Source of the DNA: Sipunculus nudus | Taxonomy: Eukaryota > Annelida > Sipuncula > Golfingiida > Sipunculidae | Length of the DNA: 64,000 nt | Reading direction: 5' to 3' | Assembly: GCA_026874595.1 (NCBI GenBank) | Contig: CM049322.1 | Coordinates: 41,472,840 to 41,536,839 of the forward strand | Shown here: one piece after another, positions 4,136 through 49,480 of the stretch | How positions within the stretch are numbered: position 1 is the first letter of the stretch | Layout of the letters: the number at the start of each line of letters is the position of its first letter | Made by a program: the position numbers and the translations under genes | The notes under the pieces: generated by a model | Databases searched by the model: none | What the model saw: only the letters and a program-made list of their open reading frames with translations | Told to the model about the DNA's origin: nothing

Positions 4136-4179
4136 AAATGCCTATGCGCAAATAAAAGACAGAAGACTAAAGGTAGCTG

Positions 4180-6659: not shown

Positions 6660-6674
6660 TATATATATACATAC

Positions 6675-6708
<34 letters not shown>

Positions 6709-6712
6709 TATA
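6660..6712. repeat. (TACA)n(TA)n microsatellite
   Basis: The tract is repeated at 10446-10493 in the second 3.78-kb copy, where it is four bases shorter. Confidence 0.9.
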
Positions 6713-7386: not shown

Positions 7387-10300
7387 CCAGTATTTTTTAT
7401 CTTCTAGCGTCTTATATTAAAGACGGGACCTTATTTTGACCAGTTTATTTGCTCTAATAAATGTCAAAGCAGAAAAAATGTATATGATATATACAATCTC
7501 ACTCACCGGATGCATTTGTCGTGTGTGTGCACTTCCTTAAAGTGAGTTGATGGAAGGTATAAAGATATATGTAATAATGTATTGGTATCAGTCATATTCA
7601 AACTTCTTGTATTTTGTATTTACCCGACATATTTAGGTTATCCCTGATACACATTTCTATGTCGGACAAATTACACCAGCTGTAGAGATATGAATGTAGT
7701 AAAGAAAGCAATGTAGTCCGTTAAAATTATTTTGGATAGGATTTGTTTCATGGCAATTTACGTGGAAATGGATCTTTCTGAGTTAAGGATTCATGAAATA
7801 AGTAATATTTTATGCATGCGCATGCGCATGCGCAAGGTAAACAGAAGTAGACCCGACCGTCCAATAATTCCTAAATTGAGGAGATTCGTTTTGAGTAGAA
7901 ATATCAATAGGAAAAATATCTGAAATGCCTATGCGCAAATAAAAGACAGAAGACTAAAGGTAGCTGCAGTGAGGGACGTAGGACTCGAGTCCAGGCTCAT
8001 GTTATCTTTTTAGGGACTTTGACCTGGACTCAAGCGTCCTTGACTCGGACTTGTAGTCGGACTCTTCTCTCAGGTAGGTACTCGAGATAACGTGCCGAGT
8101 CAATCTCGAGTCCAATAGAAAAAAAACTGTCATTCATGATAAAAACAACAGCGAACTACCAACAGAATATTGCAATATAATAGTACAATATATACCAATT
8201 TTCGCTCAGCATCTGGAGTGTAATTAATCATTATAGCATATGCATCTGTGTACTTTCTTAAAAATGTCCCTGATAATCTGAAATATTCATTTTAAATTGC
8301 CGTTTAAGGATGTTTGTACACTTGGACTCGAGTCTTAAATCCTTGAGTTGACTTGGACTCGAGTGGCTTGGACTGATATACTTGCGCTTGGACTCTAATG
8401 ATGTGGACTCGGATGGTATGTAATTAAATTCCCTAAGCCCCCCCCCGGATATATCATTTGGTCGTTGTTAAAAATGGCTTATTTGACGATACAAGGCAGT
8501 AAACCACAGACGAAAATGAAATGATAAAATTCCTATCTAACCATGCTAATCTTCAACGTGAGTAGTCAGTGCACGCTCCTGTTGACCCGCATTAGCATAT
8601 GTACAGTTGTACAAAAGTTCCATTGTATGTTTAAGTTCATTCTTAATACAGGCAACTCATTCATACAAGAGGCCAGGGACCGTGCTTCTGAAATAATATT
8701 ATCATGCATTGAAAGTAAAACGACTAGAGTGGGGTACAAGGAGACCTTGTTCCAAGTGCGCTCCCATTTCGCAATATTTCTTTTACAAGTTTTGTAACAA
8801 ACCAGGGCTATAGCCAGAGCCTACATACAGTATATACTGCATATTAAAGACAGTTATTCATATGCCTTTTCTATAGAATTTCTGTGATTTCTAGCTTACT
8901 CTTTGTAAGCACCTTTTAAAGGTGCCCATTCAGCTACCTTTTAGAAAAAAAAGGACTTATGTGATTTCTGGCTTCTTTTATTTATATATTAATGATCTAA
9001 GGGTAATATTGGTTGTGAAAAGTTCTTATAACGCCTTCGATAAAAAGTTGAGAACCTGAGTTAATGTCACACAATATGACAACTGTTATATGAATTGCAA
9101 TATAGCTTCAATAGATCTTGCTGAACTTCTATTATTATTATACATGTTATATTGTTACGTTTCTTTAATTTTCAAAATGTAATTGTCAAGGTATATTGTT
9201 CATAATTATATTATATCAATAGTTTCCCGCTCAGCTGTACAGGCTAATCATTAAAGAACGTACTTGTATCCACTGCAGTGGTATATAGTCGATCCCACAC
9301 CATCCGAGTGTGAGTGCAAGTCACATGACAGGTTACTCGAGTCCGAGTCCTTCACGTTCGAGTTCAAGTCTTCTTTGAGTTCGAGTTATTCGTTACCCGA
9401 GTCTGAGTCTACTACAAAGTCCTGTTTCAAGAAATTGAAAATGGAAATTTGAGATTATCATATATATTCCTATATGCTGGCTTACACATAGTTTTTATCT
9501 GAATGTTTAACTGCATTTAGTTCCTGTTGCAGAGCTAAAGCTTGGAAAATATAGTCTTTTTTTTTTAAATATCCTGTTAGTAGTTCGTCCATGTATATAG
9601 TATACCATATGACATTATACTATTATGTATGTGACAAACTTTATTAATTCTGGACTCGGGGTGGATCCGGTCCTTACCTCCTAGTTTAAGTCCGAGTCCA
9701 GGACCCTGAAGTCCAAGTCCCAATCCCTGAAAAGTTTACTAGAGTCCAGACTCGAGTCGAAGTCCGTTCTCGAGTCCTAGATCACTGATACACGGGAAAC
9801 GTAGAACGATACAGCAAAACGTTATTAGCCTACGCATTGCCAATTAACCTGGGTTTATGTGCAGGCTATTTTTAGTTAACACATACTTTGCGGTAACTAC
9901 AAGATAAAACGTCATCCAATGAACTGGTTCATGATTTGTTTTCGTTTCATAATTTGTGTTTGATCTGCCATATGGGTCAAAACATCTTTTCACAGTAAAT
10001 GAAAGTATAGCTCGAATGAATATAAAAGTGTCAAGTACAAGCGTCAAGCGATAACCATATAAACAAACCATACTAACATTTATGTGTGCAGCCGTTAGCC
10101 CTATTAGTTATAAAGTATTCCCGAGTGTTTGACGACTCTATCTAGCAACGTGACTATGCACTTAACATGTGCATGGTGTGGAATTCATTTATTGGTACAT
10201 GTAAGTCGAAGTCCTCAAGGCCCCTTGAGTATTCAACCAGTATTTTAATTATGGGTCACCTAAATATGGAAACCAAAGTTAGTAAACATCTCTGTTAATT

Positions 10301-11168
10301 TCGGCAAATGTTATAAAGGCAGAGTAAGAAATCAAATTAGCAGTGGTAGTACCAATAGTGTTAGCATAGTTGGAGCAGCTGAAGTAGTAATGGAAGAAGT
10401 ACTACTACACTTCGTAGTAGTAGTAGTTGTTGCAGTGACATTAGTTATATATATACATACATACATACATACATATATATATATATATATTATATAGTTT
10501 AGTGTATGTGCTAATGGCAGCCCTAGCTTAATGGTAAATACTATTAAAGACACATTGTCCGATAGATTAAATGGTGCTATATTAATGAACAATCGTTAAT
10601 GGTATAAGAGTGAATGATACAATACAGCGTTAGTTATCGAAAGAATAACGTTGAAGATTACTGCAGTGGCGATAAGAATGTAAATGAATTGACATTAGTA
10701 GCAGCAGTGACACATAGTAGTGCATTATTAGGGTAAAATAGTACATATGTTTATAATGGCAGCATTAACCATGCTACTTCCACCATTACTCATTATTACA
10801 TTTAAAATAGTAGGCTAGTTTGAATGGAAGGCGCAACGAGACCAAAAAATGTAGGAATAGCAGTAGCAGGGACAGAACAATGGAGGATCTAACCAAGGAA
10901 GAAACATAAGAAACCTTAAACTGGTCCTCAGGCCCTGAGACGAAAACAATTGGCTTGAAAATCTTGAAAAAAAGCTGCTGCTGAATAAAGGGGGTTGGGT
11001 TTTGTTCCCCACCCCTCGGCAAAGATGCCCTATACTGCCGAAACTAATAGTTGTCGGAAGCAAGCTGCGGTTGTTAAAACATGCAAAAAGAATTTAGTAA
11101 GATGTGGAGTCTTGCTTTTGTGCTGGAAATATTCCAGAAACGAATGTTCACATATAGAAAGCTGCGCT
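7387..11168 (+). repeat. 3.78-kb direct duplication, copy 2
   Basis: The copy matches 3600-7386 except for a few differences I could see by eye: substitutions near 7495, 7767 and 10979, a C-run shorter by one and a TA-run shorter by four. It is either a very recent tandem duplication or two haplotypes assembled in series. Confidence 0.95.
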
Positions 11169-26339: not shown

Positions 26340-26850
26340 TTCAGTGTAGGTTTCAGTGTAGGTCTGAGTGAATCTGGTTATAATAAACACACATATATCT
26401 GTTTTAAAACAACATAGGAAGTAATCGCCTGTAGTCCCCCCTGATACCATCTTTCTTGGTTTCGGATGTGAAATTCTCATGACACATACTACAAAATTCG
26501 TTCTGCATATCTTTTTTATCCCTAGAACATTTGCACAATAAGCAAGTGTTAAAAGGTTCTTTATCTGGAAAGAGTTATAAAGTCTCCCATTAATAAAGGG
26601 GTAACTTTTGCAAGGTTAAGCTTTGTCTGCCACTTAAACATGCGACACAAGCTTGTGACCGCGGGTGACTGAGCCTCGATCTTGAGTTGCCATTAAAACA
26701 CCTTTTGAACCGCATCCCCCGGCTGGCCACTTTTCTGGTTCGACAGAACCAGAAATCGACCTTTAATATGACTAAGAGTTCATGTTGAACCGTGCTTTCC
26801 ACATATGCTTTCTCATAATAAATGCCTGAACGAGCAGACATGGAACTAAT
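26340..26850. repeat. diverged segmental duplication, copy 2
   Basis: The sequence order matches 25280-26230 without the internal LINE-like tail. This suggests that the tail inserted into copy 1 after duplication. Confidence 0.45.
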
Positions 26851-27102
26851 GTAATAAACATGCAGTATGGTTTGGTATTATTGATATCAGCTAAGGGTTA
26901 CACTACATTAGACCATTAATGGACCAGAAATCGACCTTTAATATGACTAAGAGTTCATGTTGAACCGTGCTTTCCGCATATGCTTTCTCATAATAAATGC
27001 CTGAACGAGCAGACATGGAACAAATGTAATAAACATGCAGTATGCACAGGTATTATTGATATCAGCTAAGGGTTACACTACATTAGACCATTAATGGACC
27101 AG
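26748..27102. repeat. tandem duplication of 175 bp, two copies
   Basis: The segment starting ACCAGAAATCGACCTTTAAT at 26748 recurs at 26923 with about three visible differences. Both copies end ATTAATGGACCAG. Confidence 0.9.
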
Positions 27103-29790: not shown

Positions 29791-29816
29791 TATAAAGGTC
29801 ATGTGCCCCTCACTCA
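29791..29816 (+). promoter_or_regulatory. TATA box and initiator of the pseudoprotease gene
   Basis: TATAAAGG at 29791-29798 is followed, 25 bases after its first base, by CTCAGGT with a candidate +1 A at 29816. The start codon lies about 93 bases further on. The spacing fits a focused core promoter, but the TSS is inferred. Confidence 0.6.
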
Positions 29817-29908: not shown

Positions 29909-29978
29909 ATGAATATCAGAGCTGGTTTCGTTGCCCTGTTGATTTTATTTGTGAAGGAGTCAGAGGGACAGAAGAAAA
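29909..29978 (+). CDS. exon 1: start codon and signal peptide
   Basis: It encodes residues 1-23 plus one base. The ATG at 29909 is followed by a hydrophobic stretch (AGFVALLILFV) and a likely signal-peptidase region before ESEGQKK. The donor is GTGAGT at 29979 (phase 1). The start lies about 93 bases downstream of a predicted TSS, and no in-frame ATG is needed upstream. Confidence 0.85.
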
Positions 29979-31463
29979 GTGAGTAAAAACCCAATATATA
30001 TATATGTGTGTGTGTGTGTGTATGTGTATAAATGTACGTGTGTACACTGCAAGATTAAAAGATGAAATGGTTTCTTTATAAACATGCCGATGTTACAGTG
30101 GAAACATGATATACAACGAAAACGGTTTGTAATGATAACCAGCAAATTGCTTAAATTATAATAATGCTCCATCATTTTTTTTAAATTTTGGATGTTCATT
30201 TAGTATACAAAGTGCAGGAAAAACGATATGTTACAGTTGGAAATATCTGGTAAATATCGCCCTTAGGCCGTGACATCTACTAGAAAACTAGAATGGTAAA
30301 AACGACTTAGCGGAGACAACATTTTATTATGAAAGCAGAGGTTATTTGTGATACAATAACTTAGTATTGCTAATAATCAGGCATTCAGGTGAAGCCATTT
30401 AATATTCCTAGGGAATAAGCATTTTGTGGATGCACACCGGTTTTTGTTTAATCTGAAACACGGTTATACATTGTTTTATACAATGTAACAAATATGAATA
30501 AAAATTAAACACTTTCTGATTCAACATACAATTTGGCAAATTCAAGGTACCGATTCGGCAAAGTAACGTCTTAGTTTATTGATTTGCAGTTTTGAAGATG
30601 TGAAGATGAAAATAGGTCAGCTTTTATGATGTTTTTGTTTTGTTATGATGTTTGTGTTTTGTTAAGATGTTTGTTTTTTATGATGTTTGTGTTTTTGTTA
30701 TGATGTTTGTGTTTTGTTATAAATATTTGTTTTTTTTATAATGTTTGTGATTTTGATATGATACTTACAATTTTATTATGATGTTTGCATGTTTCTTTTA
30801 ATAAGAAATATGCGGGGAAGCACCTCACAGCGACGAATGCCTTCTCCAGATTTGGGAGAAATCTGGATGTGATCCAAAAGGGACTCATGCGCCACCGAAC
30901 GGGGTATGTCGTTAACTCTTTTTAAAATGTGGCTATTTCGCAAACGAAATTGTTCAGAATATTAGTTCTGCTTTGTTCATTTTGTAGTGAACCCCATTTT
31001 ATCCATCGACAGGATTTTTTTTATCCTGTCAGAGTCACCCCGCTTGAAATTTGGATTATACTTCTCAGTTCGATGAAGCCTTATTCGCACATAAAACAGA
31101 GTCCTTGTAAACACAGCTCTCCCTTTCGTAACGTTCATACCTGGAAGGTGGGGAACCATTAGGTCTCGGGCATTTTCGAATTCGGCCCACACGAAATCGG
31201 ACCATTTCAGATCGGACCATTACGATCTCTGACCACGGGACCAACGATCTCGGACCACTTAATTTAGGGCTACTACGATCTCGGACTAGGGTTTCAGATC
31301 TATTCATGTGATGTTCTGCCTGCTGATACCGTTATGAAATGCTCGAAATTTTGTAAATAGTACCAGTGAGAATATTATACAAAGACGACCCACGCTTCCC
31401 TATAACTATATTTATAAAAAAATGAGGCATATTAGGTTGTTATATATCGACTGAGAAAACTCA

Positions 31464-31502
<39 letters not shown>

Positions 31503-31594
31503 GCTAAATGTCAAGCACTTTGAGCATCGAGAAAGAAACCTGTTCTACCTTAGCTGTATCGAGCACTAAGCTGCAAGCATTGAAACCTACTTAG

Positions 31595-31637
<43 letters not shown>

Positions 31638-31928
31638 AACATATATATGTATATATATGCACACACACATATATTCAATACAGATGTCCAAAAGGGTCAT
31701 ATGGTCGCCTTTCGCCTGTCTTTGGCAAATAATATTTCTATTTATGTCCCTTATTAAATTATAGATATATAATCCTAATAAACCTTTTCAATTATTTTAT
31801 TTCAATCATTCAAATTTTGCACGTATTGTTAAAACACATATTACTCAAACGAGTTCACTAACTATATAATGTTAGCAAATGACAGTTAAATATTAATTAG
31901 AATTAAGAAAATATGCAAAGGATAATGG

Positions 31929-31986
<58 letters not shown>

Positions 31987-34900
31987 CGAGAGAGAATGTG
32001 TGTGTGTGTTATGTTGGTAACAAGGTTTTTTTAATGTACAGACAATATGTCTCAACATGGTTTGTAGATAGCAGATATATATTTCATTATGATATCGTAA
32101 GTCCGAACGAGGTCTAAAGGAGTCCGTCATAGTTGTCCAAGGTGGTATGGAAAAGGGTCCAACATCATCGACTCTGGTGGTACGAATTTGTGTTGGCCGA
32201 GCTCGCAAAGGTCCCGGTTCTCCAGAAACCGGAAGGTGGACGTTGCTTACAGGTCTTGTCATTGTCGTCCAAAACTACAATCAGCAAATTCATGAAACAA
32301 CTTACGACAAATTGCTTTAGGTAATAAAACTAATAAAATAAGAAAGACGTAAAATAATGCAGGTTCTGAAGTCTAGTTAAACATATGCTTTCATTAAACC
32401 TCAACAAACTTTGCACTATTAACACTATTTATCTAAACTCAGCTGCTTCAAAGGTATTGACAAGAATACTGACATTATTGATTCACAGCCTGTTGACGTC
32501 TGGCGGATGATGGACAAAAAAGAACTAAGTGTTAGCATGAAGAAGTACAAGAAAAGAGCCATGAGCGGTTACGTCGATAAAGAAACCGGTACCGAATACG
32601 TGACCCTCTGTTACGGAAAAGAGGGAGGTGAGATGACTGTTTTATAGATGACACGAAAGAGATAAAAGGAGGATCTTTAAAACATGGTTTATTATTATAC
32701 ATCATGATCGTATCAGTTTATGGTAAACTATCGTGACACTATTGTATTTCCTTAGTATCGTGAGATGTAAAGATCAGTGGATTTCTGTTTTCTTTGAAGT
32801 AGGGTCTGCAGGATCCAGCTTCATCCTTTTGGTCCTACAGATAAATATACGAGCGTCCTGTTGGACACTTGCCCATCCAGTAGTTTGTATCCGAAAAAAG
32901 ATTTCAAGCATGATAGATGCATACTCCCGCATTCCTGGAAGAAGTGTAAAAAGTAAGGTTGTGGTGTAAGACACAGGCCTTTGTAAACTAGACGCATACA
33001 CCAGAAAGTTAAAAGGACATAACTTTACCAAAATTCAAGGAGGCGCTGTATACTTATCTAGTTGTCCGATTCATGTTAGCCATTGTGAATGAAGATTGCT
33101 CTACAATTACAGGCAACAGAGAAAAGACAGTAGAAAACAAGGCTCGCATTTAATATCGTTCTAATCACCTTTCTTTTAACAGTAAGACAAAATAATAAAA
33201 GCATCCTTCGAGCTCAAATGCAGTTTGAAGCTCTCTGTGTAGCTTTGTCTTCATAGCCACGATATATATTGGACCGTGGAGTCTGTAATACGCATGATTA
33301 TCGTGTTGGTGTACTAACTAAATAGTGTCATGAGTGAGGCAGAGCCGATTAACAGAGATAAGCCTGTTCGAGTCGGTCAGCTTTATTTTCGAATGTGAGC
33401 GCTTCATTGGCTACACATCGTTTAGTCGAGGGAGGATTTGGTGTTTTTTGGCCCTATCACTACACTTTGCCACTGTTGTTACACAGCTTCCTCGGTACTG
33501 TTACTTTTTTAGAATAATTTATCAAGTTTATGTTGATGTAACAAAGATTAAACTCTTCACAAGTATATTGGAAGTAAATAACCTAGTAGTACCCCCATTT
33601 TCACTAAAATACCCCATAATTTTAAGGGTTTACAAAGGGAGGTTTTACCTTAATTACGGGTAAAATGCAATTGATGTTTATTTTATGAACACATAGCATT
33701 TGATTAACCCTTTACTGTTTACAGGCCACTAAGGAGCACTAGGAAAGGGCAACTAGAATGCCGTGATATATATAGAATTTTTCAGGACAAAAATATTGCA
33801 TATAATTTTAAAGTTTCAATGATTTTCAATAATCTTCAGCAAACCCTCTTAGTGGAAACTGTTGAAAATTTGATAAAGATACAAAAAAGCTTGAAAAGAT
33901 ATTGCGGTTAGTGTAAATTTAAATAGTGTCAGTATTTGTCGGAAATCTTAAATGAATGTAAACAGGAAAGAGTTAAGGCATTAAAAGTGAAAAATTCCTT
34001 TGTATACTAGTATTCTTGTACATTTGAGGGGATTGCCAACGAGAAAATATTACGTATCACTGCGTTTAGCTGAAATATGATTAAAGTTCAATGTATAATC
34101 GAAAAGACATATCTAAATCGTTCAACATTTCAATACTTGATGGCGCTCAGAAGCAAGCGAGGTAGTTACGGTAAATAACAAAAATTGTGTTCGTTGTCGT
34201 GGCTGGAACCATCTGGTGATTACGCGAGGACTGCAACTCGTTTTGTATGAAGAGAAAGAAAGGTGTGTTTAAAATATTACCGTTTTGAATACTGTACTTT
34301 GTATTTTAAGGGAACTGCGGTCCAAAATCTGCGCCTGGTCCTCACACACTCAGTTGTCTTCAACAGATGTGGAAGGAAGCCAAATGTTTTGTAACAGGAA
34401 CAGGGTATCCCGTACTTGGGCCGGTAAGTATTGTTACATGCAGTTTTAACGAGCTAAAGATTCGATAAGATTCCAAGATAAAGTGATTGGTCGCTGGTAA
34501 ACTATTAGTAAAGCAATTAAAATTATCATGAAAATTGATGTCATGATTCTTATAATAGTGTCATAAGAGTGCTTGATGGTTGATGTTATGAACGGATTAA
34601 TACCGATAAACATAAGTTAATAATGAATGACACTTGTGAAACCCTTGTTTTGCAGACATATTCTTCTATGTCTGAAAAGAAGCCATAAGGTTCTTGGAAA
34701 CGATTTATTTGGATATCTAATCTCCGGATTATTTTAAATCCTAGATTGATTTTCATGCAATCACAAGCGATCCTCGAAAATATAATTTAACAGTCAGAAA
34801 TGATCTCAATTTGACTTAGAAAGCAAGATAACAATTCGTACACGAAATTTAGTGCATTTTTTGTACAACTTTTAAATGCAGAAGCATTTACAAATTAATT

Positions 34901-37900
34901 TTTGAAAAGGTAGTAAAGCAAGTGAGTAACCAAGTAACCAGCAAAACTAGTGCATTTGATCAAATGAGTGGACCATTTGAAAGAACACACAATAAACTTT
35001 GAACAATGAAGAAATTACCACTATTTGCTATTAATATAAACAAGATAGTTGGCATATAAACATAAAATGTATTCGTCACTGTGGAACCTTTGTTTTCGTA
35101 ACATGAGGGGGAAAAGGGTACCAATTCCTTTATGTAACTCTCATCACGTGCTACAGAATTCTAATAATATTCATATTTGATGGCGTGTTGTACATGTTTA
35201 CAATAAAAAAAAAGGGGCTTACGATTTCACGCTTCACTCCTTATTTTTCAGAAAGTTAAGTACTGGAACAGTATGCCGGTAGGTAAAGTACGCCGTGAAA
35301 TGAGGGCGATCAAAAAGAAAGCTTTGAACCAGAAAGTAGACAAAACAGGCGAACCCTTCGTCCAAATATGTTACGGTAAGTACCTTCCCTTTGAAACACC
35401 ACTCCTCTTCACTGATGTCCGGCAAGTAGCAGGCATATCTAATTTGTGCTGTTTGATAAATATTCAGTTTGCCTCTTTTGTGTGTTTTCCTTTACCAATA
35501 ATTCATTCGTTGCTTTGAATTGATTCGCTTCTGGAAACTTAACCTGGGATCCATTAGATCCACACGATACACACCGTGGGCATATATGTATCCATAAGCA
35601 GAGACATGTTTGATGTTGATTAACTCTCCCAAAATTTGTATGAAAGAAAATGAAGAAATGTATTTTGTTTATGATGATACTGATAGTCTATTCAAATAAC
35701 TACTGTAAATAATGTTTACTTTTACAAAATGATCCGTACGAAAATCAGAATATTGGACAGACGACAATTAGAGGAAATTCTTGTACATTACCGGCAGATA
35801 AGGTGAGAGATAAGATGAAATTTATTTTAAATCTGTGTACGGGTAACATACACATATATATATCAATATTTTGCTCTACGACATCTCCCCGACGATGAAT
35901 CCTTTTATTCAAGAATTTATTTTTTGGCGATAATTTGAAACCCATGCGAACGAAAAATCAATCACAGTTTGTACAACTTTAACGTCAAATGTATCATCTT
36001 ACATATCGAATTATTTGTTTGCTCATTATACCCTGTTCTGTTGTATACGTCTTAAATTTCAGGATGTGGCATCAGTAACCACATGGACGAATTCATATAT
36101 CTCGGAAGTGATGTAACGGATCCACAACGCTGGCCATGGGCGGTGAGTTGTTGAACTTTTCATGAAAATTTCTGATTTGCTTTGAGTTTTGCATCTTAAA
36201 ATGTTTCCTTCTCTGCAGCATATTGTAATACTACATAGTATTTTATTATTTATGTGGTCAGAGCGACGTGAAAAGATATGTTTGATAAGCTGGGTGAAAA
36301 GGTTGAAGGATTAAAAGTGCATGGAGTACCCATGATTGTAAAGAAATATGAATTTAAATTATTAAAAATTGGGTTAATTACAGTATTGTTTTCTTTCTAT
36401 GGATTAAAGGAATTAAAAGGATTGGATTTCACGAGTCTAGTTCATGTTTTGTTTTTTAAACAGAACCTTTACATTGATGTGATAAAAGGAAATTAAAAGA
36501 ATAAAATATACTTTTTTCTGTCTATTAATTTGTGTTTAGAATTTCTTAAAAATTTGATAATTTTATTTAATTTAGGAGCATATATTTTTAAATAAACACA
36601 TATAATAGACAGTACCAAAAAAAATATTGGTAATAACGCCGATCCAATCCGTCATAATCCCTATTTACAAATATAAAAGTATTTATTCAAAAGAATACAA
36701 ACTCAGTGATATTAAAACCCAGTATGTAATCATATTTTCATCATATCAATAAATTGATAAGGTTGTGATTTTATTGAATAATTTACAGGTATCAATTTAT
36801 TCTGACAACGGACTTGAATGCAACGGGGCTATACTAAGTCCTAAATGGGTCCTGACAGGGGCTGATTGCCTGTATAAGTAAGTAACAAAGTGGAACGCAC
36901 ACACACACACACATATAATAGTTGTGTGCAAATTCATAAATTATAGCGATTATACCGATATGATATTCCTAATCTTTCAGATATATTAGAAGGCTGAAAC
37001 AGCATTACAACTTTACCTTGTACTGCGAATAAATATAAACAGCCCCTACATTAGCTTGACCTTTCAGCGTGATTTACACGTTAGACTGAGTTATCTCGTT
37101 CATTATGTTAGGTATAATTCTATTGATCATACTTTACTATAAAATAGGTAATACATACTATAATCGATTAATAATCGATCATGGGTCTTTCTTTTACCTT
37201 GTTGAAGAGAAGTGAACTAACACACACATATATATACAGTGATTTAAGATTAGAGACCGAATCGACTTTTCCAGGAATTTGAAATGGGACTTTGATACGA
37301 CGGGTGTATGACTTGGACATTTACTCATATTCAGAGGTTTTGGTCTAATCCAGTTCTCGTCAAGTTTAAAATAAACATATATCACTTGGGTTCTCCCGGA
37401 AAGTAGCCTACCGACACATCATAAGCGCATCACTTTAAGGGGAATATTTTGAGAAAATAAAGTTTGGACCTCCTATGTTTTAAACTTTAAAGTCTTAAAT
37501 TTCTATACATGGGCGTGGCTAGGAAAGTTAACTGTAGGATTTTCTATATATTGCAGCATGTTGAGCAAATTCATAGCCTTTTGAATAGGTAAATACCAAG
37601 GGGTCTCAGACCAGAAGTTTATAAAGTATTAAAAAGCTATTAACATAAACTTAATGTTTAATATTACTCGATATACAGTGTTTCAATCCTTTAGGTATAT
37701 ATATATATATGCCAGTATTTTGTTATGAAACCATTTGCTTACTTCCGCACAAAACTAAAAAATTCTTGCACCAAGCGCGATCAGTGATGTAATATATAGA
37801 CCCAGTGCGCACGTCACCAAGCCCTCCACGATCGACTTTACATCAATTCTTTACAAGCTTCTCTCCGGTGTTTCTTCCTTTATGCCACCTCCTAATTTGG

Positions 37901-40900
37901 TAATTGTCAGTTTTGCGCAAGACTGGACTTCTGGAGGTGCAGTTTTGTTATGGTAATCAGACTCGCATGGACTGCATTTACCCACATGCTGAAAAATAAC
38001 GTATGAAATATATGTAAAATGGGAAGACAAAGTCCACGGGCGGGATGGGTTTGTTAGTAAATCTTCGTATTCTGCCAAGTGAAGTAATTGCTATTGATAA
38101 CGCACATGTGAAATGCAATTGTTTATGTACCTTAAAGGAAAATCTGAATCAAAGATTATAAATAGAAGTCACACGAATCTATTTCGAGTCATATTTTTTC
38201 GTCGTTTACGACAGACCGATTTATGTCGTTTAACGAAACACGGCACCTCCATCTTTCCAAAGTGCAGCAATGTAATTAAATATATAATTTCCTGTGATAT
38301 CTGATAATTCTGGTATTTTTATTTGTTACTTGTATAATTTGTATAATAAATACAAATGCAATGTGCCTTAACTTTAGTTCTTACTTAACGCTAATTAGAC
38401 AGTTCAGAGACCTCCAACGTCAGAGAATAGCTATAAGAGGACGACTGCTTTGAATGTACACACGCGCTAATATACACACGTATATATAATGTACATGTAT
38501 GATTATATTTATCAGTATATATATGTGTATATATATATATATTAATTTATCTAACTTGCTTTTTTTAACTGAAATCTCATGTAGAGGGTACTTAAGGTGA
38601 TATCCGCCCTATTTTTCTCTGAAATGCAATAAAATTCATCTGCAAGATGTGTATTGTGAGGTTCTTGCTACATTGCGAGGGAATAAACGTTGAAGGTTAA
38701 AGCCGTTAATTATAACAACATGGATAATGCATTCCTAAATTATCCTACCATGTTATTATTTGGGGATTTATTTTCCGTTCTCCGTTTTGCCACCAGATTT
38801 TCTAAGTAGAAATATTGTCGAGTTCAGCTGTCCTCGCATTCCTTCCGGGTTCTAACCGAAACCAAAAAGTTTTATTTCTCCCAGTTTTTTTTTGGGTGGC
38901 CATTTTGCGTTTACACAAAAACACAGGGGTCTCAGTTCGCGTGTCGAAATTACGGATATACCGCTTGTAAATATGTATTATCTTTTTTCTACTCCAGTGA
39001 CGAAGCTGGCGATCTCACCGTTCGTATGGGCGTGGTAGACATTTCTGGGGACGGTCCGGAACCAGTTCTGTCAGGGGTACAACGCATCATAACTCACGAA
39101 GACTATGAGTCCGTTGGGAGTCCTTTCAAGTAAGACATTTGTCATATAGTGAATATAGAGTGGTGAAGAGAAGGTATAAAGATATTGCGAGCTTATGTTT
39201 CATGACTGCACGCTAAGAAAAAAGGGTTCCAGCTGGAACCAAAAGGGGTTCTTTAGAGTGGACTGAGTGGGAAACCTTTCAAGGGTCTTTTTGAAATCTC
39301 CCGAGGGTTCTTTTATGGAACTTGTAAGGTTCCATCTAGAACCTATTCAGAGGTTCTGAGAGGAACCATTCCAGGTGATGGACTGAACAGAGAACCTTGA
39401 AAGGTTCTTGGGGTAACCCGACGTGTCAGGTTCTTTATAATCATACGTTTAGCATACATTAATCACACCTCATATATATATATATGTAGTAATTGGCTGT
39501 TTAAAATGGAATATGTATAGCAAACGGCTGTTACATATATGTTGAATTAACAGTTTTTATTACCATAATCTGCTTTGAATTTGTACCATGTTGACCCAAG
39601 TTTCAAGGGGTCATTTTTTATTTATCAATAATGATATGTTATAAATGCAGTCCAGGTATATGGGTGTTGTTGAGCCCTTGCCCTCTTGCACATAATGGTT
39701 AAAAGTTCAAATTGTTCGTCGGCTTAATGACGATTGACGATTAGTGTATTTGAGATCTGGTTGTGCGAGTCCACGATTGGTCACACTGTACCAGGCATTA
39801 TGGTCATTATACACTGTTTATAAACCATGTATATATACAGCCGCTTACTATATATGTTCCACTGACAAAGAAGGTCTAAGCTTCGAAAGCTCGTGAATGA
39901 AACACTAAGGCGTCCACACCTATAAACAATAATGTTTTCTGAATGTTCCCGAAATATAATTTACACGATAACCTTTAATTCACAGGAACCGTATTCAATT
40001 TACACAAAACATATTAAAAAGTAAGTTACATGAATTTTTTACAACGGTATATTAACAGAAAGAATACGTACTAGTCCTTATTCCCATGTTTACCTTATAA
40101 TATTCATTACCTTTCTTTCAAACTATTTGAGGCCTCCTTATACTAAGGTGGTTAACATAGACAAAAATTGCTTTTATTTTGCTTTGTGACCCACAATTAA
40201 ATGTGCAAAGGTAACACATGTTATGATTGAGAAATAACTAGCAATGTTAAATATTCACTCTTCCTTCTTTATTTGCATTCTTGCTTAACATAAAGATGTT
40301 TCGGGTTCCTGCAAAGAGAGAGAATGAATGGGTGACCTAAATATATCCTATACTTGGTAAAAATTAATCACTGCACATCAGGTTAATTTTAGAACGCCGT
40401 CAACGAATGAGTAATTAAGCGTGACCATGCCACGAGAGACTGTTTTGTCCTTATACGTTTTGAAAACCCCAATACTAAAGTTTCTAAAACTTAAATATAA
40501 TTTTTTTTGTTTGCATTTGAATACAATGATACACATGATTACGATCATTACACAATGTATACTGAATAAGTAATCATATCTTATTCTTTTAAATGTATTT
40601 GTGGAATTCCTCCTATTCAGATGAAGATACAGACATAACAATCTTAGAATTTTGCTTTGTGATACACACTTCCAAGAGGATTATTAACACTTGACACGTT
40701 TTAATTAAGGAATAACTCAGGTATAACCAACCAAATTAAATTCATCATTAAATTAAAATCCTTTCAAATGAAAACAAAATCTTTCTTCTTGTTCATTTGC
40801 ACTCTTGCTAGCCATGGAAATGTATCGGGTTACTGCAAAGAGAAATAACGGAGAGATGACATAAAAAGAAAATCATACTAAATCAATATAACACCAAATT

Positions 40901-42561
40901 ATTAGGAGAACACTTTCAGTTAATGTGTAATTTAGTATGACCAATCATTGACAGAGTTCGTGTTGTTCCTCAAGCCCATGTGATGAAAACCCCCAAGTGA
41001 ACAGTTTTCAAAACAATGCTCCAATATTTCGCATCAACTCGTTATACGGATAATAGGCTTGGCGATGTGTTTTTAGTCCTATATAAAAGAAAAATGATTT
41101 GAAGGACAAATTAAAGAAAGCACTTAGGATAGAGAAATACTGTAAACAATATATACAGGGTGTTATGAATGCATTTGATGTAAAGTCGTCTGGCTTGTTT
41201 AGTTTCAATCACTGAAGCCGCATTATAATTTTGTATAATTTGTTTGCTTGATGGATTTATGGATTCTTTTTACGAAAAAAGAGGACCTTCATGTGGTTTT
41301 TTTTAATAGAGGCACGGGGAGCCTCTTATTCTAAGAGTGCGAGTTAAAATGCTTTTGGGAGTTCAAGCAATTAATAATTTACAAACCTTGATATGCTTTA
41401 TTAAAACGTGTAGTTTCGTTTTCATTATTTTTTTTGTCATTTTAGGTATCTTTTTCTGTCATTGGTTTAATCTTCCCGTATTTACCTGATTTTAAAATAA
41501 AGGTTAAAGTCGCAACAAGTGAAACAGTTGAGATATAAATAAAATCTTAAATAAAAAGGTTAGCTTAAGTATAATTTGATGTAGCATTTCTTGCAAATAT
41601 CCCTGTATTAACTTAATGCAGAAAACGTTTTAAGTTCATAGTAGTACAAATAAATACAATATCATATTACTCTTAGTACAGATTCTTTATGATGATACAC
41701 GTCTTTATTAAATTTACAATCATTTTCAAATGACATAAGTAACCAGTAACATCGAATTGCTTTTCAGTCAGTTATTTACAAACTACATGACAGTACACTA
41801 AATCGTTCTTGCTTATTAATTAATATTTTTGATGCAAGAAAATAAAAGAAAATTTCATTTTTCAAAAGATAACATCTTATATAAATATGTTGTATATAGA
41901 ATTTCTGTTTACTGATTGATTAAGGGTCATTCATGACATGGCGTTGCTGGAGCTCACTGAAGAGGTTGAGCTGGGACAAACTATCAGACCAATATGTCTA
42001 CCAAGACCAGGTGGCAAATCATACAACAAGTGTCACGCGGCAGGCTGGGGAATAACAGAAACCGATGGTAAGACAAGCCATTGTTGTAAATGAAAATTTC
42101 TTTTGAATCAAATCAGCGAAAGATAAGAAAAATATTGAGTAAACGAATAAGAAGGAGGTGATATGTCAATCAAGAAAAGTATCTGACTAGGGGTTCAGAA
42201 ATTAGTATGAAAGTTCCCTGTACTGCTTTTATAAAATATTAAAGGCTCATTAGTTTAACCAGTTAATTTTTATGTTTTAGTCACAAACTAGCCTTGGGGT
42301 ACATAACAACAAATTTTTACCAGTATGAAAAAAATATGGCATGACCTCAAAGACATGCTTAATTGCTTTAAAGATCTATTTCACAACACGGTTTCTTTTC
42401 TATGATTGACAGGATATGGGAGCGACATCTTGCAGGAACTCAAGATACAACTCGTGGATGATGATGAGTGTGGGGAAAGAACTAGACTCAGTTGGATCTC
42501 GACAGGTGGCGTTCAGTGTGGCGAAGGGGAAAGTGGAGGTAGACTATGTCATGTAAGTCAA

Positions 42562-42619
<58 letters not shown>

Positions 42620-42986
42620 TTAAATAAGTTTGACATAATCTCAATTTGAGATTTAGGGAAAACGGTTGCAACTTGGGAACTTTTAATGTTAGATTTCTGG
42701 TACAGGTGGCATTTGACAAGCTTTCAGTCATTCAAGTGTAAGCTGCATCTATTCTAGCTACATCTTCTGTCAAACGCATATAAGCAAATTTAAAAATGCC
42801 ATCAAACGGGCAATATTTTAGTTGGTCAGGTCGAGGTTCCACTCTTAGTAGTACCGCTGTCACTGACTAGACTGCAAGTCTCGTCTTGTCTCGCAACTGC
42901 GGCAATCAAACGAGAAGAAGCAAAGTTTCACGGACATGATCACGTTTTATGCTAGGGAGGTCTGGTTTTCTGCATGTTGTGGCATA

Positions 42987-43032
<46 letters not shown>

Positions 43033-43346
43033 TTTACCTAATATATATTCGTCATATCACAACCTTTTGAACAGTAATGAGGGTGTTATTGTATCGTTTC
43101 CAGCAGTCTGCTGGCTAGGACTGGTGACTATGTGACGATTACATCTTGTTATAATATAAACTTTAATTTCAGAAAGATTCTGGGGCGCCGTTGGTTTGTA
43201 TACAAGGAAAGAACGACTACTATGTTGCCGTAGGCGTCGGCAGTTGGTGGCCGAAAAAGTGCGAATCATCCAGCTATCCGCATGGCTTTGCGCAGGTGGA
43301 CGAAAAAGTGCGTTGGATCCGAGAGAAATGTAATCAGTGTAACTAA
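29909..43346 (+). CDS. secreted serine protease homologue (S1 pseudoprotease) with two N-terminal cysteine modules; 11 exons, 433 aa
   Basis: Exons join(29909..29978,30806..30903,32489..32627,34311..34423,35252..35375,36063..36142,36789..36877,38998..39129,41925..42067,42413..42552,43173..43346) give one frame of 434 codons with GT-AG borders throughout. Residues 1-20 form a hydrophobic signal peptide. Residues 25-102 and 104-182 are two copies of a four-Cys module that I cannot assign to a named family. Residues 183-433 are an S1 (chymotrypsin-fold) domain with WPWAVSI, WVLTGADC, DMALLEL, AAGWG and KDSGAPLVC. Cysteines fit the disulfides 183-306, 219-235, 318-385, 349-365 and 375-406. The catalytic triad reads D234 (normally His), D286 and S379. 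G193 is K377, position 189 is R373 and position 216 is W402. The domain starts IYLG after EF, so no Arg/Lys activation site is seen. I infer a catalytically dead secreted binding or regulatory protein, as known for other S1 homologues in clotting and innate immunity. Its actual role is unknown. Confidence 0.9.
30628..30790. repeat. degenerate GATGTTTGTGTTTT tandem repeat in intron 1
   Basis: About eight units of roughly 18-20 bp share TATGATGTTTGTGTTTTG. The array ends just before the exon 2 acceptor at 30805. Confidence 0.8.
30806..30903 (+). CDS. exon 2: first half of cysteine module 1
   Basis: It encodes residues 24-56. C26, C35, W40 and C45 are seen in the pattern C-L-x2-I-W-x4-C. The exon enters in phase 1 and leaves in phase 0 at a GTATGT donor. 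Its counterpart in module 2 is exon 4. Confidence 0.88.
31156..31300. repeat. short CGATCTCGGACCA repeats in intron 2
   Basis: Variants of ATCTCGGACCA and ATCGGACCATT recur about six times. (CA)n at 31471-31496, (TA)n at 31599-31635 and (AG)n at 31931-31982 follow in the same intron. Confidence 0.6.
31931..31994. repeat. (AG)n microsatellite in intron 2
   Basis: AG dinucleotides run for about 60 bp, interrupted once by CCGCG. Confidence 0.95.
32489..32627 (+). CDS. exon 3: second half of cysteine module 1
   Basis: It encodes residues 57-102 plus one base. W61, a Lys-rich helix-like stretch (66-79), VDK (85-87) and CYG (97-99) are visible. The exon leaves in phase 1 at GTGAGA. Exons 2 and 3 together are 237 nt, so the module is a symmetric 1-1 unit that can be duplicated without breaking frame. 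Confidence 0.88.
34311..34423 (+). CDS. exon 4: first half of cysteine module 2
   Basis: It encodes residues 103-140, with C105, C118, W123 and C128. The C118-to-C128 spacing equals C35-to-C45 in module 1. The exon enters in phase 1 and leaves in phase 0 at a GTAAGT donor, exactly like exon 2. Confidence 0.88.
35252..35375 (+). CDS. exon 5: second half of cysteine module 2
   Basis: It encodes residues 141-181 plus one base: W145, a Lys/Arg-rich stretch (152-168), VDK (169-171) and CY(G) at 180-182. Exons 4 and 5 together are again 237 nt. C128 to C180 is 52 residues, identical to C45 to C97. Confidence 0.88.
36063..36142 (+). CDS. exon 6: linker and start of the S1 domain
   Basis: It encodes residues 182-208: GCGIS, then IYLG in the place of the protease N-terminus (usually IVGG), then RWPWA. 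C183 corresponds to chymotrypsin Cys1. The usual basic residue before the activation cleavage is absent (EF precedes IYLG). The donor is GTGAGT in phase 0. Confidence 0.88.
36789..36877 (+). CDS. exon 7: His57 region with Asp in place of the catalytic His
   Basis: It encodes residues 209-237 plus two bases. The canonical WVLTAAHC motif reads WVLTGADC; codon GAT at 36864-36866 gives D234. A single base change from CAT would produce it. C219 and C235 form the C42-C58 pair. The donor is GTAAGT in phase 2. Confidence 0.9.
38998..39129 (+). CDS. exon 8: S1 domain, strands between His57 and Asp102
   Basis: It encodes residues 238-281 plus two bases, including LTVRMGVVD and the VQRIITHEDYE segment typical of S1 folds before the Asp102 strand. 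It enters and leaves in phase 2 (donor GTAAGA). Confidence 0.87.
39212..39440. repeat. GGTTC/GAACC palindromic repeat in intron 8
   Basis: Many alternating AGGTTC and GAACC motifs (GGGTTCCAGCTGGAACC, AAGGTTCCATCTAGAACC, GAGGTTCTGAGAGGAACC) would fold into stems. It is related to 16362-16480. Confidence 0.6.
39768..40400 (+). repeat. dispersed 630-bp repeat in intron 8
   Basis: From GGTCACACTGTACCAGGCAT to TTTTAGAACGCCG it matches 53737-54355 with few differences. It includes GGTCTAAGCTTCGAAAGCTC. The class is not certain; such GGTCTAAGC...GAAAGC segments occur in terminal regions of some retroelements. Confidence 0.8.
40160..41000. repeat. diverged internal duplication in intron 8
   Basis: ATCGGGTTACTGCAAAGAGA at about 40826 mirrors TTTCGGGTTCCTGCAAAGAG at about 40300, with matching flanks (TTGCATTCTTGCT, GTGACC, GAAAACCCC). 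The offset is about 520 bp. Confidence 0.6.
41925..42067 (+). CDS. exon 9: Asp102 region
   Basis: It encodes residues 282-329 plus one base. HDMALLEL places the catalytic Asp at D286. IRPICLP gives C306 (Cys122) and KCHAAGWG gives C318 (Cys136). It enters in phase 2 and leaves in phase 1 at GTAAGA. Confidence 0.9.
42413..42552 (+). CDS. exon 10: S1 region up to Cys191
   Basis: It encodes residues 330-376, with C349 and C365 (the 168-182 pair) and C375 (Cys191). R373 lies at position 189, where trypsins have Asp. A second GESGG sequence (368-372) looks like the active-site motif, but alignment to C375-H-K-D-S shows it is the preceding loop. The phase-0 donor (GTAAGT) splits the active-site motif just before KDSG. 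Confidence 0.88.
42565..42620. repeat. (AAT)n/(ATT)n microsatellite in intron 10
   Basis: The trinucleotide run starts 12 bases after the exon 10 donor. A (TA)n tract at 42985-43031 lies in the same intron. Confidence 0.95.
43173..43346 (+). CDS. exon 11: Ser195 region, C-terminus and stop
   Basis: It encodes residues 377-433. KDSGAPLVC carries S379 in the Ser195 position, but Lys replaces Gly193. SWW puts Trp at position 216. C385 and C406 complete disulfides. The domain ends VRWI, followed by REKCNQCN with two extra cysteines. That tail and the stop are also the first unit of the downstream 31-bp minisatellite. Confidence 0.9.
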   Translation, partial: KDSGAPLVCIQGKNDYYVAVGVGSWWPKKCESSSYPHGFAQVDEKVRWIREKCNQCN

Positions 43347-43962
43347 ATTCGAAAGAACTGTATTATGTGTAACTAGGATTCGTAAGAAATGTAATCAGTG
43401 CAACTAAGATTATTAAAAAATGTAATATGTGCAACTAAGATTTACTAGCAAGGTAATCAGTGTAACTAAGATTTGTAAGAAATATAATCAGTGTTACTTA
43501 GATTTCTATGGATTATAATCATTATTGTAACTAAGATCTGCAAGTAAAGTTATCCGTGTAACTGGGATTTGTAAGAATTCTTATCAATGTAACCAAGATT
43601 TGTAACAATTGTAATCAGTGTGATTAAGGTTTTTAAGAAATGTAATCTGTGTAACCGAGATTTGTAAGGAATGTAATCAGTGTATCTAAGCAGTACAAAA
43701 AAAGGTAATTAATCAGTGTAACTAAGACTTTTAAAATATAAAATCAGATTAACTATGATTTCTACGAAAAATAATCAGTGTAACCAAGATTTACTGGAAA
43801 GGTAATCAGTATAACTAAGATTTACTAGGAAGGTAATCCGTGTAACTAAAATTTCTAAGGAATTTAATAAGTCCAACTAAGATTTATAAAAAAATTTAAT
43901 CAGTGTTACAAAGATGTTAAGGAACATAATCAGTGTAACTAAGAATTACAAAAAAAGACTTT
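43325..43962 (+). repeat. 31-bp minisatellite overlapping the 3' end of the gene
   Basis: About 20 degenerate units of roughly 31 bp share the core GTAATCAGTGTAACTAAGAT. The first unit is inside the coding region and supplies the CNQCN codons and stop. The array makes up the proximal 3' UTR. A variant poly(A) signal ATTAAA occurs at 43412-43417, but I cannot tell whether it is used. Confidence 0.85.
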
Positions 43963-44099: not shown

Positions 44100-45440
44100 C
44101 CTGATTATTGTCCGCTGCCTCGCGGATGCGGGGGACATTGATTTGGGTTTGTCTGTCTGTCTGTCTGTCTCTCTGTCCGTCCGTCAGGTTTCTTTTCCTT
44201 GCGATAACCTTGATATTATCCGATTTCATCAAATTTGGGTCAGTGATTGCTCTCATGCATACCTTGGTTGGGAAAAGTTTTGGAGTGTCTGGCTTCTGTC
44301 TGTCTGTTACTTTGTCAGTCTGTCAGGTTTTCGTTTCCGTGCAATAACTTTCCTAAATATTATCTGATTTCATCCAAATTTGGGTTAGTGATTGCTCTCA
44401 TGCATTCCTTGGTTGGGATTTGGAGTGTCTGTCTTCTGTCTGTCTGTCTGTCACTTTGTCTGTCGGTCTGTCTGGTTTTGTTTCCCTGCGATAACTTTCC
44501 TAAATATTATCCGATTTCATCCAAATTTGGACCAGTGTTTGCTCTCATACAAACCTTGGTTGGGATTGGTTTTGGAGTGTCTGGCTTCTGTCTGTCTGTC
44601 ACTTTGTCTGTAGGTCTGTCAGGTTTTCGTTTCCCTGCGATAACTTTCCTAAATTATATCCGATTTCATCCAAATTTGGATCAATGATTGCTCTGATGCA
44701 TACCTTGGTTGGGATTGGTTTTGGGGTGTCTAACTTCTGTCTCTGTGTCTGTCTTTCACTTTGTCTGTCTGTTTGTCAGGTTTTCGTTTCCGTGCAATAA
44801 CTTGCCTAAATATTATCCGATTTCATCCAAATTTTGATCAGTGATTGCTCTCATGCTTACCTTGGTTGGGATTTGTTTTGGAGTGTCTGGCTTCTGTCTG
44901 TCTGTCTGTCACTTTATCTGTTCATCCGTCAGGTTTTCATTTCCCTGCGATAACTTTCCTCAATATTATCTGATTTTAATCGGAATTTTGGTCAGACATT
45001 GCTCTCATGCATACCTTGGTTGGGATAGGTTTTGGAGTGTCTGGCTTCTGTCTGTCTGTCACTTTTTCTGTTCGTCTGTCAGGTTTTTGTTTCCCTGCTT
45101 AAACTTTCCTAAATGTTTTACGTTGTCATTCAAATTTTGGTCAGTGATTGCTCTTATACTTACCTTGGTTTGGATTTGTTTTGAGGTGTCTGGCTAATGT
45201 CTGTCTGTCTTTAACTTTGTCTGTCTGTCAGTTTGTCAGGTTTTCGTTTCTGTGAGATGACTTTCCTAAATATTATTCGATTTCATTCAAATTTTGGTCG
45301 GTGATTGCACTCATGCTTACCCTGGTTGGGATTTGTTGGAGTGTCTGGCTTCTGTCTGTCTGTCTGTCTCTCTGTCTGTCCTACCTTTATCAAGCATGAA
45401 AAACAACAAGATCCCAAAGCGGGGGACATTAATTCCACAA
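44100..45440 (+). repeat. tandem repeat of about 145-159 bp, roughly nine units
   Basis: Each unit has TGTCTGTCTGTC, CAGGTTTTCGTTTCC, ATAACTTTCCTAAATATTAT, GATTTCATCCAAATTTGG, GTGATTGCTCTCATGC and CCTTGGTTGGGAT. The last motif recurs near 44262, 44406, 44551, 44701, 44860, 45015, 45162 and 45320. Open frames across it are by-products of the repeat. Confidence 0.9.
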
Positions 45441-47569: not shown

Positions 47570-49480
47570 TTGGTGGCATCTGCGAATCCGCTTGGCGACT
47601 TGGTGACGTCTGCAGTTTCCCTGTGTGACTTGATGACGTCTGCGGTTTAACTGTGTGACTTTATGACGTCTGCATTCCCACTGTGTAATTTGGTGACGTT
47701 TGCAGTTTCACTGTGTGACTTGGTGACGTCTGCAGGGTTACTGTGTGACTTGGTGACGTTTGAAGTTTAACTGTGTGACTTGGTGACGTCTGCAGTTTCA
47801 CTGTGTGACTTGGTGACGTCTGCATTCCCCCTGTGTGACTTGGTGACCTTTGCAGTTTCACTGTGTGACTTGGTGACGTCTGCGGTTTAACTGTGTGACT
47901 TGTTGACGTCTGCAGTTTCACTGTGTGACTTGGTGGCGTCTTCAGTTTCACTATGTGACTTGGTGACGTCTGCAGTTGCACTGTGTGACTTGATGACGTC
48001 TGCATTCCCACTGTGTGACTTGGTGATGTTTGTAGTTTCAATATGTGACTTGGTGACGTCTGCAGTTTCACTGTGTGACTTGGTGACGTCTGCATTCCCA
48101 TTGTGTGATTTGGTGACCTTTGCAGTTTCACTGTGTGACTTGGTGACGTCTGCGGTTTAACTGTGTGACTTGTTGACGTCTGCAGTTTTAATGTGTGTCT
48201 TGGTGACGTCTGCTGTTTCACTGTGTGACTTGGTGACGTCTGCAGTTTCACTGTGTGACTTGGTGACGTTTGAAGTTTCACTGTGTGACTTGGTGACGTC
48301 TGCAGTTTCACTGTGTGACTTGGTGACGTCTGCATTTCCACTGTGTGACTTGGTGACGTTTGCAGTTTCACTGTGTGACTTGGTGACGTTTGCAGTTTCA
48401 CTGTGTGACTTGGTGACATCTGCAGGGTTACTATGTGACTTGGTGACGTCTGCAGTTTCACTGTGTGACTTGGTGACGTCTGCATTTCCACTGTGTGACT
48501 TGGCGACCTTTGCAGTTTGCCTATGTGACTTGGTGACGTCTGCAGGGTTACTGTGTGACTTGGTGACGTTTGAAGTTTAACTGTGTGACTTGGTGACGTC
48601 TGCAGTTTCACTGTGTGACTTGGTGACGTCTGCATTCCCCCTGTGTGACTTGGTGACCTTTGCAGTTTCACTGTGTGACTTGGTGACGTCTGCGGTTTAA
48701 CTGTGTGACTTGTTGACGTCTGCAGTTTCACTGTGTGACTTGGTGGCGTCTTCAGTTTCACTATGTGACTTGGTGACGTCTGCAGTTACACTGTGTGACT
48801 TGATGACGTCTGCATTCCCACTGTGTGACTTGGTGATGTTTGTAGTTTCACTATGTGACTTGGTGACGTCTGCAGTTTCACTGTGTGACTTGGTGACGTC
48901 TGCATTCCCATTGTGTGATTTGGTGACCTTTGCAGTTTCACTGTGTGACTTGGTGACGTCTGCGGTTTAACTGTGTGACTTGTTGACGTCTGCAGTTTTA
49001 ATGTGTGTCTTGGTGACGTCTGCTGTTTCACTGTGTGACTTGGTGACGTCTGCAGTTTCACTGTGTGACTTGGTGACGTTTGAAGTTTCACTGTGTGACT
49101 TGGTGACGTCTGCAGTTCCACTGTGTGACTTGGTGACGTCTGCATTTCCACTGTGTGACTTGGTGACGTTTGCAGTTTCACTGTGTGACTTGGTGACGTT
49201 TGCAGTTTCACTGTGTGACTTGGTGACATCTGCAGGGTTACTATGTGACTTGGTGACGTCTGCAGTTTCACTGTGTGACTTGGTGACGTCTGCATTCCCA
49301 CTGTGTGACTTGGCGACCTTTGCAGTTTGCCTATGTGACTTGGTGACGTCTGCAGGGTTACTGTGTGATTTGGTGACGTCTGCAGTTTCCCTGTGTGACT
49401 TGGTGACGTCTGCAGTTTCACTGTGTGACTTGATGACGTCTGCAGGTTCAGTCGGTTACTTAGTGGCGAAGCAGGTTCAC
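47570..49480. repeat. 30-bp satellite, about 63 units, with an 810-bp higher-order repeat
   Basis: The unit is CTGTGTGACTTGGTGACGTC followed by TGCAGTTTCA. Variants (TGCAGGGTTA, TGCATTCCCA, TGCGGTTTAA, GACCTT) recur in the same order with a period of 27 units: 47731-48540 and 48541-49350 match nearly base for base. Because 30 is divisible by 3, long frames are open on both strands. The reverse strand gives a ten-residue LQTSPSHTVK repeat (49505-48786 and 48761-47661) and the forward strand gives VTSAVSLCDL. Confidence 0.97.

What the first reader, a model, noticed from the sequence alone, without database searches (positions are those of the whole stretch)
36789..43346. S1 domain with catalytic His replaced by Asp but fold fully preserved
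Seen: WVLTGADC instead of the usual TAAHC-type motif (D234), D286 and S379 retained, Lys at 193, Arg at 189, Trp at 216, and all five expected disulfide pairs placeable. Known: S1 homologues lacking His57 are inactive and often serve as cofactors or recognition proteins. Inference: several independent changes around the active site, with no damage to the reading frame, point to selection for a non-catalytic role.
Basis: partly seen in the sequence, partly recalled or inferred. Interest (0 to 1): 0.72.

Follow-up and report, generated by a model that had tools for sequence, protein, structure and literature searches.

The report
Secreted serine protease look-alike gene
This animal gene encodes a secreted protein that keeps the shape of a digestive-type serine protease but seems to have lost the parts needed to cut proteins, so it most likely works by sticking to other molecules; such look-alikes are common in animals.

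Summary
An 11-exon gene (29909..43346, +) encodes 433 aa: signal-like leader, two tandem 4-Cys repeats, S1 domain (Pfam Trypsin E 6.2e-38). Numbered on chymotrypsinogen, Asp replaces His57; Asp102, Asp194, Ser195 stay; Lys sits at 193, Arg at 189, Trp at 216; five S1 disulfides are placeable. New here: no Arg/Lys at the activation site (F|IYLG), His at 226, Ala at 197. Several changes need two or more nucleotide changes from the usual residue; the frame is intact; no alternative His exon was found in the window. Best reading: a secreted S1 pseudoprotease (serine protease homolog) acting by binding. Selection is inferred only from the intact frame: no orthologue, dN/dS or transcript was available. 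As a class this is ordinary: a beetle has 125 such homologs among 269 S1 sequences, 83 of 125 without His57. Less ordinary is the N-terminal doublet, without a credible Pfam or PDB match, and a charge split (+13 N-terminal, -17 S1). Host, paralogues and function stay undetermined; the genome tool did not complete.

The parts
29791..29796 (+). TATAAA, possible TATA box 118 nt before the start codon
   Evidence: consensus match only
29909..29978 (+). exon 1: start codon and hydrophobic signal-peptide-like leader (MNIRAGFVALLILFVKESEG)
   Evidence: by eye, no signal-peptide program was run
30806..30903 (+). exon 2: first half of N-terminal 4-Cys repeat 1
   Evidence: phase-1 intron before, phase-0 intron after
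32489..32627 (+). exon 3: second half of repeat 1 (ends ...CYGKEGG)
34311..34423 (+). exon 4: first half of 4-Cys repeat 2
   Evidence: exons 2 and 4 match each other by tblastn (E 0.002 and 0.089)
35252..35375 (+). exon 5: second half of repeat 2 (ends ...ICYG), basic
   Evidence: exons 3 and 5 match each other by tblastn (E 0.002 and 0.005)
36063..36142 (+). exon 6: cysteine C183 (position 1) and changed activation site DEF|IYLG, then WPWA
   Evidence: positions 15-19 read by eye
36789..36877 (+). exon 7: WVLTGADC, Asp (GAT) at chymotrypsin position 57
38998..39129 (+). exon 8: S1 domain, segment before D102
41925..42067 (+). exon 9: HDMALLEL with D102 (D286), RPICLP (C122), GWG 140-142
42413..42552 (+). 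exon 10: C168, C182, R189 (R373), L190, C191
43173..43346 (+). exon 11: K193 D194 S195 G196 A197, SWW (W216), H226, C-terminal KCNQCN and stop
43324..43944 (+). 31-nt tandem array, 19.8 copies, starting inside the last codons of the gene
   Evidence: 70% matches
43412..43417 (+). ATTAAA, possible poly(A) signal
   Evidence: consensus match only, inside the tandem array

Best explanation
A secreted S1A pseudoprotease (serine protease homolog). Shown from sequence: signal-like leader, two homologous 4-Cys repeats, and an S1 domain with its disulfide cysteines but with H57D, S1-pocket positions changed to R189, L190, W216 and H226, Lys for Gly193 of the oxyanion loop, and no trypsin-type activation site. 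Inferred: it does not cut peptides and works by binding. The basic N-terminal part (net +13, repeat 2 alone +10) would attach to polyanionic surfaces or a partner, and the acidic S1 domain (net -17) would offer a protein-binding face, as in clip-domain SPHs of arthropods or vertebrate pseudoprotease ligands and scaffolds. Immune or cascade-cofactor use is my leading guess among binding roles, at about 0.4.
For: Pfam Trypsin 6.2e-38 and 548 PDB sequences. Of 36 positions invariant in five triad-intact S1 references, 25 are kept and 11 differ. By my knowledge of the fold, eight of the 11 lie at or near the active site and pocket (G43, A55, H57, G193, G197, G216, V227, Y228); two lie elsewhere (G25, I47); one (C182) is an alignment slip. 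The changes are not one hit: if the ancestor had the usual residue, G193K needs 2 nucleotide changes, G226H 2, P1 Arg to Phe 2, and the second and third residues after the cut (V, G) 2 each. Frame and 20 splice sites are intact over 13.4 kb, and coding GC is 48% against 33% in introns. No His-bearing alternative exon was seen in the window. Charge split.
Against: No activity, transcript or orthologue data. Position 189 varies among S1 enzymes: Arg is three changes from Asp but one from Ser AGT/AGC (my reading of the code), so it is weak evidence; three of the 11 differences are conservative (I47L, A55G, Y228F). K193 alone does not prove inactivity (recalled: mesotrypsin has Arg193 and is active). 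F|I could be cut by a chymotrypsin-like enzyme; T. molitor S1 proteins with L|IVGG sites are listed in PMC11172050 (passages seen). Net charge is a weak guide to binding.
Confidence: 0.72

Rival explanations
1. A recently silenced gene or one damaged allele: H57D and some of the other changes are early decay, with no new role.
For: H57D is a single nucleotide from His (GAT against CAT), and G197A and G216W are single changes too. One sequence only, no transcript. At 0.01 substitutions per site 54% of 2000 neutral runs still have no stop, so a very young pseudogene would look intact.
Against: G193K, G226H and the P1 site each need at least two nucleotide changes from the usual residue. That many neutral changes would be expected to bring stops or splice loss: 0.6% of 2000 runs without a stop at d=0.1, and by formula about 2% chance that 40 splice nucleotides are untouched. 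Caveat: the pocket changes may have arisen while the protein was still active.
Confidence: 0.13
2. An unusual active enzyme: Asp57 or another residue stands in for His57, with a pocket for a rare substrate.
For: Asp102, Asp194, Ser195, Gly196, Ser214 and Trp215 are kept.
Against: Pocket and oxyanion-loop positions carry bulky residues (W216, H226, R189, K193) and the usual activation site is gone. A kept Ser195 is not telling: 24 of 125 T. molitor SPHs keep it (PMC11172050). I recall no S1 enzyme that uses Asp at 57; no search was made for one.
Confidence: 0.06
3. Sequence or model artefact: a wrong exon or base errors create the apparent changes.
For: The gene model has no transcript support, and the window holds a 3.8-kb tandem duplication at 99.8% identity that might be an assembly fault.
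Against: All ten introns have canonical ends and consistent phases. The seven changed sites (P1, 57, 189, 193, 197, 216, 226) lie in four exons and would need many independent base errors without a frameshift. No alternative exon 7 was found.
Confidence: 0.05

Closest known systems
Arthropod clip-domain serine protease homologs (CLIPA28 network of Anopheles; Sp-SPH of mud crab)
   Same: S1-like domain without catalysis in a multidomain immune protein; non-catalytic cofactors (PMC6901238, abstract) or microbe-binding (PMC3665817, abstract).
   Different: No clip domain was detected here: four cysteines per repeat and no Pfam match to the doublet above cut-off. The mosquito SPHs are activated by cleavage (abstract); here the usual Arg/Lys site is absent.
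Vertebrate S1 pseudoproteases (HGF, MSP, haptoglobin, protein Z, PRSS23)
   Same: S1 fold kept, function by binding receptors or partners (PMC13194640, passages seen). PRSS23 likewise lacks the normal activation switch.
   Different: Different accessory domains (recalled); PRSS23 keeps its triad, which is broken here.
Coagulation factor XI and plasma kallikrein catalytic domains
   Same: Best sequence matches among solved structures; 36% identity to factor XI over 219 aligned positions.
   Different: Those are active enzymes with apple domains and an R|IVGG-type site (recalled); the match is by the S1 domain and says nothing about blood clotting.

Membership tests
S1A (chymotrypsin/trypsin) fold family | significant whole-domain match | tested here: met
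   PF00089 E 6.2e-38, profile 4-220 of 220
S1A (chymotrypsin/trypsin) fold family | disulfide cysteines 42-58, 136-201, 168-182, 191-220 (and 1-122) | tested here: met
   cysteine positions; 182 and 220 placed by eye
Active S1A protease | His57-Asp102-Ser195 triad | tested here: not met
   D57; D102 and S195 kept
Active S1A protease | Arg/Lys-type activation site R|IVGG | tested here: not met
   DEF|IYLG
Active S1A protease | Gly193 and open S1 pocket (Gly216, Gly226) | tested here: not met
   K193, W216, H226; note that one reference, L002, has Thr at 226
Serine protease homolog (S1 pseudoprotease) | S1 domain with one or more triad residues replaced | tested here: met
   definition as in PMC11172050; H57D
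Serine protease homolog (S1 pseudoprotease) | no proteolytic activity | not testable with these tools
   needs purified protein
Clip-domain SPH | clip domain (recalled: six cysteines) before the S1 domain | tested here: not met
   four Cys per repeat; no clip family among Pfam matches at E up to 1
Orthologous group under purifying selection | related species share D57, K193, W216 with low dN/dS | not testable with these tools
   no animal sequence collection on hand; the genome search did not complete (seven calls)

The most novel reading that the evidence does not exclude
The N-terminal doublet is an undescribed extracellular 4-Cys domain (C-8-C-9-C-51-C in repeat 1, C-12-C-9-C-51-C in repeat 2, two exons per repeat, bounded by phase-1 introns) that serves as a docking module for a family of S1 pseudoproteases, giving an invertebrate lineage its own counterpart of the arthropod clip-domain SPHs.
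Probability: 0.25. Interest if true: 0.5.

Novelty: new member of a known kind. Interest (0 to 1): 0.32.

Why it matters
S1 pseudoproteases are common, and by my knowledge most are unstudied outside insects and vertebrates. This one is a clear case: triad, oxyanion-loop glycine, pocket and activation site are all changed while the fold markers are kept. It comes with an accessory doublet that had no credible Pfam or PDB match, so it gives a concrete handle to look for a non-arthropod set of such proteins and for a small disulfide domain not yet in Pfam.

Tried and rejected
Tried without result. Relatives of the N-terminal doublet in viral contigs and genome contigs, and of the S1 domain in viral contigs and genome contigs: 15, 73, 1 and 48 pattern hits, none confirmed. 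Phage records: no match. Plasmid records: 111 bacterial records with distant trypsin-like proteins; four were fetched as alignment yardsticks. PDB search for the doublet: none at E up to 10; with a two-row profile two matches at E 0.22 and 0.96, taken as chance. Exon 10 alone against PDB: none at E up to 1. Rfam at gathering thresholds: none. Pfam on 10 longer open frames elsewhere in the window: 3 of 10 had matches (best E 0.0078), all under the curated cut-offs; the remaining open frames were not scanned. Paper searches for such proteins in molluscs, oysters, gastropods or other lophotrochozoans and on pseudoproteases in general: no listed paper describes this architecture in its title or the start of its abstract, but several lists were capped (one search showed 20 of 3,745; 12 of 179; 15 of 27), one search found nothing, and the library is open-access only.

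Considered and rejected: an alternative His exon (besides exon 7 itself only short chance matches such as isolated AAHC or LTAAH strings outside an S1 context; the scan is weak, since the gene's own exon 10 scored only E 0.53 with its probe); clip domain (no match, four cysteines per repeat); recent damage as the sole cause (see rivals).
Full report
What is there. The gene model runs from 29909 to 43346 on the + strand in 11 exons. The coding sequence is 1302 nt, 433 aa plus a stop, and all ten introns start with GT and end with AG. Exon ends were chosen to keep the frame and have no transcript support. A TATAAA lies at 29791 and an ATTAAA at 43412, both only consensus matches. Coding GC is 48% and intron GC 33%.

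Domains. Residues 1-20 look like a signal peptide (by eye). Residues 24-103 and 104-182 are two homologous repeats, 41% identical in alignment A1; their local alignment score is 128 against a maximum of 53 in 2000 shuffles. Each is encoded by two exons, with a phase-0 intron inside and phase-1 introns at both ends, and each has four cysteines (26, 35, 45, 97 and 105, 118, 128, 180). For the doublet Pfam gives only matches under the curated cut-offs (best DUF6440, E 0.041, 14.1 bits against a cut-off of 26.5), and PDB gives none or two at E 0.22 and 0.96 with a two-row profile. Residues 183-433 are an S1 domain: Pfam Trypsin E 6.2e-38 over profile positions 4-220 of 220; DUF1986 also matches residues 205-309 of the same stretch, under its cut-off (E 0.00017, 22.4 bits against 25.2). 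The best solved relatives are the factor XI and plasma kallikrein catalytic domains, then TMPRSS2 (60 of 548 shown).

Active site. I numbered the residues on bovine chymotrypsinogen (letters confirmed) in an alignment with factor XI and four bacterial S1 proteins. D234 is at 57, D286 at 102, D378 at 194, S379 at 195, K377 at 193, A381 at 197, R373 at 189, L374 at 190, W402 at 216 and H413 at 226. Of 36 positions invariant in the five triad-intact references, 25 are kept and 11 differ; one of the 11, C182, is an alignment slip, since C365 is one residue away. The activation site reads DEF|IYLG where S1 zymogens usually have R|IVGG, with one more residue before Trp27 than in chymotrypsin; the automatic alignment places it one residue off, so positions 15-19 are read by eye. 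No Arg or Lys lies between C183 and R204, so a trypsin-like activator has no target at the usual place. A chymotrypsin-like one could cut after Phe; S1 proteins with L|IVGG sites are listed in a beetle survey (PMC11172050, passages seen). The five S1 disulfides are placeable, two of their cysteines by eye, and two further cysteines (429, 432) sit in the C-terminal KCNQCN.

Is it damage or design? H57D, G197A and G216W are each one nucleotide from the usual residue. G193K, G226H and the loss of Arg at P1 need at least two each, as do the changes of Val and Gly just after it. D189R needs three from Asp, but position 189 varies and Arg is one change from Ser, so it weighs little. Under neutral change the frame stayed free of stops in 54% of 2000 runs at 0.01 substitutions per site, 6% at 0.05 and 0.6% at 0.1; by formula, 40 splice nucleotides would be untouched with probabilities 0.67, 0.14 and 0.02. 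So an old pseudogene is unlikely. A very recent inactivation of an already odd protein is not excluded. A scan of the window for trypsin motifs and with generic S1 probes showed no second exon 7 with His and no second S1 gene (with the protein itself). That scan is weak for diverged exons: the gene's own exon 10 scored only E 0.53, and an unrelated stretch near 13315 scored E 0.029.

How it probably works. The S1 pocket positions carry bulky residues, the oxyanion-loop glycine is Lys and the catalytic His is gone, so catalysis is very unlikely (inference). The N-terminal part (21-182) has net charge +13 (pI 9.4), mostly from repeat 2 (+10; repeat 1 is +1); the S1 domain has net charge -17 (pI 4.65). 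I suggest a two-part binding protein: a basic part for a polyanionic surface or partner, and an S1 domain as a protein-binding face. Arthropod SPHs bind microbes or act as cofactors (PMC3665817 and PMC6901238, abstracts), and vertebrate pseudoproteases serve as ligands, cofactors and scaffolds (PMC13194640, passages). None of this was tested here.

How unusual is it? In Tenebrio molitor 125 of 269 S1 sequences are SPHs; 42 of the 125 keep His57 (so 83 do not) and 24 keep Ser195 (PMC11172050, passages). A lost His57 or a kept Ser195 is therefore ordinary. What I could not place is the N-terminal doublet. Absence from Pfam and PDB is not absence from animal proteomes, which I could not search; the whole-genome tool did not complete.

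Verdict. Observation confirmed and extended; interpretation partly supported. New member of a known kind, with one open lead in the doublet.

Noticed in passing
window 3600-7386 and 7387-11168: Head-to-tail duplication of about 3.79 kb at 99.8% identity: a very recent tandem duplication or an assembly fault.
   Followed up: no
window 47597-49450: 30-nt minisatellite, 61.8 copies, 85% matches, with long open frames on both strands that fit the 30-nt period; whether any is translated is unknown.
   Followed up: no
window 43324-43944: A 31-nt tandem array (19.8 copies) begins inside the last codons of the gene: the codons of the C-terminal KCNQCN and the stop match the consensus unit over about 23 of its 31 nt, so either the array grew out of the gene end or the tail was captured from it.
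   Followed up: partly
window 44150-45381: 157-nt (or 460-nt) tandem array rich in TCTG, 8.2 copies, 81% matches.
   Followed up: no
window 26748-27102: 175-nt unit in two tandem copies, 96% matches.
   Followed up: no
L001 (Streptomyces globisporus plasmid NZ_CP108665.1), match at 151-855: A plasmid-borne S1 protein with Gln at 57 and Ala at 195 (LTAAQC, GDAGSP): it looks like a bacterial S1 pseudoprotease; the record carries no annotation.
   Followed up: no
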